The notes beneath the pieces were generated by a model. The model worked only from the letters and a program-made list of their open reading frames with translations. It ran no database searches and was not told the origin of the DNA. From Microcaldota archaeon (lineage in GTDB: Archaea; Micrarchaeota; Micrarchaeia; Micrarchaeales; CABMGC01): a DNA stretch of 41,011 bases. Below, in pieces: positions 10,311 through 30,141 of this stretch. A program made the position numbers and the translations under genes. Location: assembly GCA_021828295.1 (NCBI GenBank), contig JAKASF010000006.1:1-41011 (forward strand). Reading direction: 5' to 3'. Every line of letters starts with the position of its first letter. Position 1 is the first letter of the stretch.

Positions 10311-10570
10311 GTGCAGCAGGAGCCGACCTAGCCGCAGGCAAGCAAGCCAGGTTGACCACACCTCTGCTCAGCCCTGTATCTCCAGAGCACAGCCGCGCGT
10401 ACTTAGGGTTGCTCCTTCCGGCCTGGCCCGGTTCATGCGCGAGACCGCCACTGAAGGCAAGACCTCGACGCTTTGGCGTGGGCCCGACATGCATGCAAGC
10501 AACACGACCGGCATACGGCCCGCCTAAAGGGGGTTTGCGGTGAGGGAAACCTCTAGCTTCCCGCCTCCCT
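10311..10570 (-). ncRNA. signal recognition particle RNA (7S RNA)
   Basis: On the minus strand the gene contains the SRP54-binding hairpin of domain IV, with GGCCAGGCCGGAAGGAGCAA at about 10410-10429. Near the 5' end two small hairpins, GAGG-TTT-CCCTC and CCGC...GCGG, look like Alu-domain helices 3 and 4. Part of helix 5 is visible as GGGCCG near the 5' side pairing with CGGCTC near the 3' end. The length of about 260 nt is slightly short for archaea, where about 300 is usual. Ends are set by a TATA-like box 27 nt before 10570 and by the last helix pairing near 10311. It targets secretory proteins to the SecY channel with SRP54. Confidence 0.88.
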
Positions 10571-10592
10571 ACTGCATTACCATATTGGGCGA

Positions 10593-12206: not shown

Positions 12207-12848
12207 ATGGGGGAAGTGAAGATAATAGTGGACAAGCGGGAGAGGAACCTCGACATACTTGAGGGGCTCTCCGGTTCCGGCATATTCCTCAGCTTCGCCC
12301 AGCTCCCGGTTGGCGACTACATCCTTTCCGAAAGGATGTGCGTTGAGCGCAAGACGGTGAATGATTTTGAGAGTTCTATAATAAACGCAAGGCTCTTCGA
12401 TCAGATAGAGCGACTGAGCAACACATACAAGAAACCGATATTGCTGCTGGAGGGGGAGGAATCAGAATTTACCATGAACCCCAACGTGGTCCTCGGTGCG
12501 ATAATCAGCCTATACGGAGACTACAACGTGCAGGTCATAAGGTCGAAGGACTCGGCCGAGACCGTGAGCACGCTGGCCAGGCTTGCCGAACGTGAGCAGG
12601 ACGAGAAGCGAGTACCACGCATGCTGGGCTCGAAGAGAGCGTTCAGCAACTCGCAGTGGCAGTTGCTTATACTCGGCTCCATACCGGGGATAGGCCCAAA
12701 ACTCGCCAGGTCGCTTATCGGGCATTTCAAGACCATAAAGAACGTCGTCTCTGCGGAGCCGAAAGAGCTGATGAAGGTTGAGAAGATAGGGGAAAAGAAG
12801 GCAGAGAAGATATACGAGGTGCTAAACTCAAAATTCGTGGAGGAGTAG
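12207..12848 (+). CDS. xpf: XPF/ERCC4-family structure-specific endonuclease
   Basis: The 213-residue protein is the short archaeal form without a helicase. The ERCC4 nuclease domain has IIVDKRER (6-13), GDY (36-38) and ERKTVNDF (47-54), giving the catalytic Asp, Glu, Arg and Lys. Residues about 150-208 form a tandem helix-hairpin-helix (ILGSIPGIGPKLARSLI and VEKIGEKKAEKIY). The dimeric enzyme cuts 3' flaps and forks, typically with PCNA. No PCNA-binding motif is obvious at the end (SKFVEE). ATG at 12207 follows TATATCAATATG-type AT-rich sequence shared with rio1. Confidence 0.93.
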   Translation: MGEVKIIVDKRERNLDILEGLSGSGIFLSFAQLPVGDYILSERMCVERKTVNDFESSIINARLFDQIERLSNTYKKPILLLEGEESEFTMNPNVVLGAIISLYGDYNVQVIRSKDSAETVSTLARLAEREQDEKRVPRMLGSKRAFSNSQWQLLILGSIPGIGPKLARSLIGHFKTIKNVVSAEPKELMKVEKIGEKKAEKIYEVLNSKFVEE

Positions 12849-12855
12849 CGCTTAT

Positions 12856-12873
12856 GCCGCTCTCTTTTGCGGC
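12856..12873 (+). terminator. possible terminator hairpin after the XPF gene
   Basis: GCCGC (12856-12860) and GCGGC (12869-12873) can form a five-pair stem over the loop TCTCTTTT. It lies eight bases after the stop codon. Archaeal terminators are mostly U tracts, so this is weak. Confidence 0.25.
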
Positions 12874-12887
12874 AGGAAGTGAAGAAG

Positions 12888-12967
12888 GAGGGGTAGCATG
12901 TGGGAAAATGTCTGTAACCTGGATCGGGGAGAACCAAGATCGTATATTTGGACGCTACCCCTCAACA
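12888..12967. ncRNA. candidate structured small RNA (H/ACA-like on the plus strand)
   Basis: GAGGGGTAGC (12888-12897) pairs perfectly with GCTACCCCTC (12954-12963) across a 56-nt insert in a convergent gap where nothing else is coded. On the plus strand the stem is followed after one base by ACA (12965-12967), as in archaeal H/ACA guides. An inner stem AAATGT/ATATTT (about 12906-12911 with 12944-12949) would leave a pocket of about eight and four nt. A GATC/GATC helix could close the top. No clear kink-turn is seen. On the minus strand two box-A-like sequences lie 25-55 nt before the stem, so a minus-strand RNA is also possible. Confidence 0.35.
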
Positions 12968-12983
12968 GTATTCTCTTTGTGAA

Positions 12984-13027
12984 GGCGTAAAAGCTTTACA
13001 GGTTCGCACTACGGCGTATAAAGCTTT
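12984..13027. repeat. two direct copies of a GGCGTA-AAAGCTTT element
   Basis: GGCGTAAAAGCTTT (12984-12997) and GGCGTATAAAGCTTT (13013-13027) differ by one inserted base and are 29 nt apart start to start. Read on the minus strand each gives a BRE-plus-TATA-like order (AAAGCTTTATACGCC, AAAGCTTTTACGCC). They could be tandem promoters for the candidate RNA at 12888-12963. Confidence 0.4.
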
Positions 13028-13059
13028 CGAGATGATTGAATAACTCTGTTATAACGCTT

Positions 13060-13515
13060 TTAGTCGCTGAGCAGCTCGGAGATGGCAACGTTTCCAGACA
13101 CTTTTGGGTCTAGCGAAACAGGTATGCGCCTTGTGCTGACGATTCCGTTTGCCTTAGAGAACCTCGAAAAGAGCGCTGCACTTGACGAGAAGACGCAGAA
13201 CCTTTTGCTGTCGGCGGCACCGCATTCCCTTAGCGCCTTGCCTATGTTCATGGTGCCGCACAGGAACAGCAACATCTCGACCTGCATGCTATTGGACCTT
13301 GAGCTGCCTTCCCCGAAGCGCAGTGCCGCATTTACGTATGCCGGAAGGACGCGGCGCACCAGCCGTTCATCGTAGCGGAACAGCAGCAGAACATCGCCTC
13401 CCCTGACGAGCCTTTTCGAGCTCTCGACCAGCTCGTTTATGCTTCTTTTGCTGCTGCAGACATGGAGTACGGGTCGGCTTTTGAAGACGGCAGGATTGGT
13501 GGAACGAGCCCGCAT
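13060..13515 (-). CDS. cgi121: KEOPS complex subunit Cgi121
   Basis: The 151-residue protein fits the Cgi121/TPRKB family: CSSKRSINELVESSKRL, then GGDVLLLFRYDERL, RRVLPAYVNAALRF, the diagnostic EMLLFLCGTMNIGKALRECG, and a C-terminal strand region. In KEOPS, Cgi121 binds Bud32 and the tRNA CCA end during t6A synthesis. TsaC, encoded at 9693, supplies the threonylcarbamoyl-AMP. ATG at 13515 is chosen. TTG at 13524 is also possible, since the box A (GTTATATAG, 13545-13553) would place the RNA start there. The promoter is shared with divergent S8e. Confidence 0.75.
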   Translation of the reverse strand: MRARSTNPAVFKSRPVLHVCSSKRSINELVESSKRLVRGGDVLLLFRYDERLVRRVLPAYVNAALRFGEGSSRSNSMQVEMLLFLCGTMNIGKALRECGAADSKRFCVFSSSAALFSRFSKANGIVSTRRIPVSLDPKVSGNVAISELLSD

Positions 13516-13544
13516 CACAATCAATAAAACCCTTTCCCTGTTAA

Positions 13545-30027: not shown

Positions 30028-30033
30028 TAAGCT

Positions 30034-30131
30034 GGGCTCGTAGCTCAGCTTGGATAGAGCAACAGCCTTCTATGCTGCAGTAAGGAAGCAAAGCAAGCTG
30101 AAGGTCGCGGGTTCAAATCCCGCCGGGCCCG
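30034..30131 (+). tRNA. tRNA-Arg(TCT) with an intron
   Basis: The gene folds with acceptor GGGCTCG/CGGGCCC (G1-C72, with one G-U), D-arm GCTC-AGCTTGGATA-GAGC, T-arm GCGGG-TTCAAAT-CCCGC and discriminator G at 30131. The anticodon stem CAGC/GCTG and the loop CTTCTA give anticodon TCT at 30069-30071. A 23-nt intron (about 30073-30095) most likely follows position 37. Its ends TGCT/AGCA can pair, as in a bulge-helix-bulge. The mature anticodon stem would have an A27-A43 mismatch. CCA is not encoded. Confidence 0.85.
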
Positions 30132-30141
30132 TGGTGCTAAC

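What the first reader, a model, noticed from the sequence alone, without database searches (positions are those of the whole stretch)
12888..12967. Candidate small structured RNA in a convergent gap, with a 10-bp perfect stem and an ACA one base after it
GAGGGGTAGC and GCTACCCCTC pair perfectly over 56 nt in a gap with no gene. On the plus strand ACA follows directly, and an inner AAATGT/ATATTT stem would leave a two-sided pocket as in archaeal H/ACA guide RNAs. If so, the pocket strands (about ATGTGGGA and GGAC) would guide pseudouridine at a site of the form GUCC-UN-UCCCACAU. The weak points are that no kink-turn is visible and that box-A-like repeats on the minus strand could instead drive a minus-strand RNA.
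Basis: partly seen in the sequence, partly recalled or inferred. Interest (0 to 1): 0.62.

Follow-up and report, generated by a model that had tools for sequence, protein, structure and literature searches.

The report
Conserved small RNA gene in Micrarchaeota
The hairpin is part of a real, previously unlisted small RNA gene of about 75-80 bases found in a few closely related tiny archaea, but it is read from the opposite strand to the one proposed and is not an H/ACA guide RNA; what it does is still open.

Summary
The stem is in the sequence as stated, but a perfect 10-bp stem alone is no more than chance (about 2.7 expected per window). Comparison with relatives shows that it is real. Four other genomes of the same Micrarchaeota genus each carry one homologous hairpin. 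A covariance model built from those four finds the window copy (minus strand, 12963 to 12885) as the only match in its whole genome. Eight of 22 base pairs show compensatory changes (0/500 shuffles). An apical hairpin, yGGUUC-UCCCC-GAyCCr, is almost invariant. TATA-like boxes lie about 28-31 nt upstream on the minus strand (weak in the window copy), and G-U pairs favour the minus strand. The H/ACA reading fails: wrong strand, no kink-turn, no consistent ANA box, pocket not conserved, no 16S target. Rfam has no match. The carriers form one clade; the gene sits near TruD or behind Cgi121, and one genome holds both a working and a decayed copy. Best reading: an unlisted, lineage-specific small structured RNA gene, probably acting in trans through its fixed C-rich apical hairpin (inferred). 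A similar RNA gene in a second genus may be a distant homolog.

The parts
12885..12963 (-). Small structured RNA (model-defined extent; true ends not known). 5' end near 12963-12966, 3' end near 12880-12885.
   Evidence: Covariance model R2, built without this copy, hits here only in the whole genome, E 7e-4; 5.4e-5 over 57.8 kb.
12952..12963 (-). 5' arm of the long stem, GAGGGGUAGCGU on the minus strand
   Evidence: Sequence; fold; covariation in homologs.
12888..12899 (-). 3' arm of the long stem, AUGCUACCCCUC on the minus strand
   Evidence: Sequence; fold; covariation in homologs.
12920..12936 (-). Apical hairpin yGGUUC-UCCCC-GAyCCr, nearly invariant in five genomes
   Evidence: Pattern search, alignments A1 and A7.
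12986..12993 (-). TATA-like box CTTTTACG, about 22 nt before the RNA start; weak here, clear in the relatives
   Evidence: Promoter comparison over seven copies, 0/20000 random placements (control not restricted to noncoding DNA).
13017..13024 (-). Second, better TATA-like sequence CTTTATAC, about 53 nt upstream
   Evidence: Seen in the sequence.
12207..12848 (+). Neighbour: ERCC4/HhH (XPF-like) nuclease gene
   Evidence: Pfam PF02732 E 3e-30.
13060..13524 (-). Neighbour on the same strand as the RNA: Cgi121 (KEOPS subunit) homolog
   Evidence: Pfam PF08617, 23.2 bits, just under cut-off.

Best explanation
Shown: the minus strand of 12885-12963 carries a homolog of a small structured RNA element present once in each of four other genomes of this Micrarchaeota genus, with a covarying long stem and an almost invariant apical hairpin. 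Strongly suggested: it is an independent non-coding RNA gene of about 75-80 nt with its own TATA-type promoter. Inferred: the 5' and 3' ends pair to make a rod whose sequence is free to vary, and the fixed C-rich apical hairpin (yGGUUC-UCCCC-GAyCCr) is the working site, most likely bound by an RNA-binding protein to form a small RNP, or alternatively pairing with a G-rich RNA target in trans.
For: One copy per genome in G000, G001, G004, G006, G007. Held-out validation: R2 from the four other copies hits the window as the sole match in G000. Eight pairs with double changes, covariation score 0.414 against 0.263 in shuffles, 0/500, and a sharp drop when slid by 1-3 columns; RNAalifold predicts the same structure. 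Minus strand: 92.7% of cells paired against 86.4% if read on the other strand. TATA-like box at -28 to -31 in most copies. Apical hairpin invariant in stem and loop while the other helices vary. Indels of 5 and 7 nt argue against coding. No match to any Rfam family. The working copy lies at two different loci and a decayed copy persists at one of them in G007 (0/1000 shuffles), as expected of a gene and not of a local regulatory element.
Against: No expression data. Only five close sequences support the covariation, and the alignment was fitted to the model. In the window copy the nearest TATA-like box is poor. Three genomes of the genus (G002, G003, G005) show no copy; G002 is one contig and was scanned whole, so the RNA is dispensable or much diverged there. 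The mode of action is inference: the loop complement is not enriched at ORF starts and pairs with 16S rRNA no better than shuffled sequence.
Confidence: 0.62

Rival explanations
1. Trans-acting antisense sRNA: the single-stranded UUCUCCCC region pairs with G-rich mRNA targets, as C-rich loops of some bacterial sRNAs do.
For: A C-rich, conserved, exposed loop; archaeal sRNAs with trans targets are known (sRNA162, PMC3510493; review PMC5867862).
Against: GGGGA, GGGGAG and GGGGAGA are not enriched near ORF starts in the carrier G001 (9, 3, 2 seen; 9.6, 3.2, 1.1 expected). Stem positions of the apical hairpin are as fixed as the loop.
Confidence: 0.25
2. Plus-strand archaeal H/ACA pseudouridine guide, as first proposed.
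For: Stem-pocket-stem outline and an ACA one base after the stem in the window copy.
Against: Strand evidence, pocket not conserved, no kink-turn, ANA not kept in place, no 16S target, no Rfam hit.
Confidence: 0.03
3. A structured 3' UTR or terminator/processing hairpin of the neighbouring gene (Cgi121 in the window), not a separate gene.
For: In G000 and G007 it lies downstream of Cgi121 on the same strand.
Against: In G001, G004 and G006 it lies elsewhere, after a tRNA gene or an IS element and near TruD, with its own TATA-like box; a terminator would not need an invariant 17-nt apical sequence.
Confidence: 0.07
4. A mobile or decaying repeat with no present function.
For: Two genomic locations, a decayed remnant in G007, patchy occurrence, IS200/IS605-like sequences nearby in G004 and G007.
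Against: One copy per genome; compensatory changes and an invariant core show selection.
Confidence: 0.03

Closest known systems
Archaeal H/ACA guide RNAs (single hairpin, Cbf5-Nop10-Gar1-L7Ae)
   Same: Small single-hairpin RNA of about 70-80 nt with internal loops in an archaeon.
   Different: No kink-turn or k-loop, no consistent ANA box on either strand, variable internal loops and fixed apical loop, which is the reverse of a guide RNA.
Archaeal trans-acting small RNAs such as Methanosarcina mazei sRNA162 (PMC3510493)
   Same: Intergenic small RNA genes thought to act in trans.
   Different: No sequence relation tested or known; no target found here; the invariant part includes a base-paired stem.
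Bacterial sRNAs with C-rich regions, e.g. RoxS (PMC5419742)
   Same: Exposed run of C residues as the conserved part.
   Different: Different domain, no known relation, and no enrichment of the complement at translation starts.
Archaeal RNase P RNA and SRP RNA
   Same: Structured, conserved, non-coding.
   Different: Both are found separately in the genome.

Membership tests
Archaeal H/ACA guide RNA | ANA (ACA) box directly 3' of the lower stem | tested here: not met
   Minus strand: no ANA at a constant place after the stem in the homologs. Plus strand: A-ACA, ACA, AUA, AAA, ACG in G000, G006, G004, G007, G001, not at a constant place.
Archaeal H/ACA guide RNA | Kink-turn or k-loop with sheared G-A pairs, 5-6 nt above the pocket (PMC7991803) | tested here: not met
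   Folds and alignment show no tandem G-A motif; judged by eye, no kink-turn model was run.
Archaeal H/ACA guide RNA | Two-sided pocket complementary to an rRNA site, conserved with it | tested here: not met
   Pocket sequences differ between homologs; proposed target absent from G001 16S. 23S not obtained.
Archaeal H/ACA guide RNA | Bound by Cbf5 and L7Ae | not testable with these tools
   Needs experiment.
Box C/D guide RNA | Box C (RUGAUGA) near the 5' end and box D (CUGA) near the 3' end | tested here: not met
   Neither box is in the five aligned homologs at the expected places.
Any Rfam 15 family | Score at or above the gathering threshold | tested here: not met
   No match in the window element or homologs, also with relaxed E-value.
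Trans-acting archaeal sRNA | Independent transcript from its own promoter | tested here: inconclusive
   TATA-like boxes in place; no RNA data.
Trans-acting archaeal sRNA | Complementary mRNA targets | tested here: inconclusive
   No enrichment of the loop complement at ORF starts in G001.

The most novel reading that the evidence does not exclude
A new family of archaeal small RNA, shared by at least two Micrarchaeota genera, that forms an RNP through a fixed C-rich hairpin and belongs to none of the known functional classes of archaeal RNA.
Probability: 0.3. Interest if true: 0.65.

Novelty: new member of a known kind. Interest (0 to 1): 0.45.

Why it matters
DPANN archaea have very small genomes and few described small RNAs of their own. 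A conserved, covarying RNA gene of unknown role in genomes of about 0.8 Mb suggests a regulatory or RNP function worth keeping, and gives a concrete, testable candidate with exact coordinates, strand and a model that finds it. It also shows that a single-genome hairpin, unremarkable by itself, can be settled by comparison.

Tried and rejected
Plus-strand H/ACA guide (strand, kink-turn, ANA, pocket conservation, 16S target). Box C/D, tRNA and RNase P identity: no boxes, no Rfam hits, and RNase P RNA is elsewhere. BLAST-type DNA search of the gap in 59 relatives found only the window itself, so homologs were found through gene neighbourhood and the core pattern. Viral contigs: no exact core match. 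A first reading of the relatives' gene order as an inversion was wrong: minus-strand loci had not been turned (corrected). Weak model hits in other genomes (L087-L091, L094-L098, L100-L103) lie in long open frames and are treated as chance. For L092 (G017) the alignment score looks strong against shuffles but is no better than that of those chance hits, so its homology is not claimed on score. Pairing of the loop with translation starts: not supported.

Full report
Observation. The two arms GAGGGGTAGC (12888-12897) and GCTACCCCTC (12954-12963) are exact reverse complements 56 nt apart, with AACA following on the plus strand. The gap 12849-13059 lies between the convergent genes for an ERCC4/HhH nuclease and a Cgi121 homolog. 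A perfect 10-bp stem with a spacer up to 70 nt is not rare in this window: 2.7 are expected in dinucleotide shuffles. The fold is better than shuffles on either strand (z about -2.8).

Homologs. A DNA search with the gap found no relative in 59 genomes. The neighbouring genes led to a same-genus locus (L003 = L043, G007) with a hairpin behind Cgi121 that shares TGGTTCTCCCCGAYCCAGGT. Searching that core in 59 relatives gave one copy each in G000, G001, G004, G006 and G007, in gaps between genes; the hits in G002 and G049 are not flanked by a comparable hairpin and look like chance. All five share an outer variable stem, an inner GCAC/GUGU-like stem, and the hairpin yGGUUC-UCCCC-GAyCCr.

Independent test. 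Model R2 was built from the G001, G004, G006 and G007 copies only. In whole genomes it finds the window copy, minus strand 12963 to 12885, as the single match in G000 with E 7e-4, and each model member once; over 57.8 kb of loci with filters off the window copy has E 5.4e-5. On the alignment of all five (A7) 92.7% of cells pair, eight of 22 pairs have changes on both sides, and the covariation score of 0.414 exceeds all 500 shuffles (mean 0.263); sliding the partner by one to three columns drops pairing to 42-51%. The alignment was fitted to the model, which favours the structure, but RNAalifold gives the same one. In the window copy the outer pairs can also be read as one continuous 12-bp stem.

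Strand. On the modelled strand 12 cells are G-U and 5 are A-C; read on the opposite strand pairing falls to 86.4%. TATA-like boxes begin about 28-31 nt before the RNA start on that strand in most copies, clear in G001, G004 and G006 and weak in G000 and G007; the summed score is 45 against 33.8 for random placements nearby, 0 of 20,000 (the random placements include coding DNA, so the contrast is partly composition). The RNA is therefore most likely on the window's minus strand.

Genomic history. In G001, G004 and G006 the RNA sits near TruD, after a tRNA gene in G001 and G006; in G000 and G007 it sits behind Cgi121. G007 also keeps a decayed remnant at the TruD locus that aligns to the TruD-type copies (best score 44 against a shuffle mean of 18, 0/1000). 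The five carriers form one clade in a TruD tree (support 100/98). G002, G003 and G005 show no copy; G002, a single contig, was scanned whole with R3 and for the core plus stem. A simple reading is two copies in the ancestor of the carriers with later loss of one or the other; this is inference.

A possible second genus. R2 gives a weak hit in G017 (L092:1501-1573; 15.6 bits, not significant). It lies in AT-rich noncoding DNA, has a TATA box 28 nt before a GGG start, folds far better than shuffles (z -4.0, 0/200), resembles the family at both ends and around UCCCC, and is 72/73 identical in a second species of that genus (L099). Chance hits in coding DNA score as high in a plain alignment, so homology is possible but not shown. 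R3, which includes it, finds no further credible copy in 301 genomes of the class; its marginal hits L098 and L100 lie in open frames.

Function. Tests of specific ideas were negative or not decisive. H/ACA fails on several defining features (PMC7991803 for the features). Rfam has no match. RNase P RNA is separate. The loop complement is not enriched at ORF starts of G001, where GGAGG is not enriched either. The core pairs with G001 16S rRNA no better than shuffled cores; 23S was not obtained. What the data do show is that the apical hairpin is fixed in stem and loop while every other helix varies. I take this as a sequence-specific binding site on a structural rod, more likely for a protein than for an antisense target, with modest confidence.

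Verdict. A real, unlisted, lineage-specific small RNA gene on the minus strand; the proposed H/ACA identity and guide target are not supported. Novelty: a new member of a known kind (small structured non-coding RNA), function unsettled.

Noticed in passing
L056:1420-1500 (G007, TruD locus): Decayed remnant of the TruD-linked copy of the RNA, while the working copy lies behind Cgi121 in the same genome.
   Followed up: yes
L092:1501-1575 and L099:1501-1573 (another genus): A 73-nt GC-rich RNA-like element with a TATA box and strong fold, 72/73 identical between two species; possible distant homolog or a separate new RNA.
   Followed up: partly
window 30033-30132: ARAGORN reports a tRNA with a four-base anticodon (ctat) over 100 nt; probably an intron-bearing or unusual tRNA.
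   Followed up: no
window 10315-10573, minus strand: SRP RNA that scores best against Rfam's bacterial large SRP model although the genome is archaeal.
   Followed up: no
L119:4902-6391 (G001): 16S rRNA as bounded by the model ends ..GAUCACCUCGG, and GGAGG is not enriched before ORF starts; no 23S in the 5 kb downstream, so the rRNA genes appear unlinked.
   Followed up: no
L045:9-1292 and L056 near the TruD start: IS200/IS605-type TnpB and transposase-like sequences flank the RNA locus in G004 and the TruD locus in G007.
   Followed up: no
window 12207-13524: The RNA lies beside genes for tRNA-modification enzymes at both loci (Cgi121 and TruD); may be coincidence.
   Followed up: no
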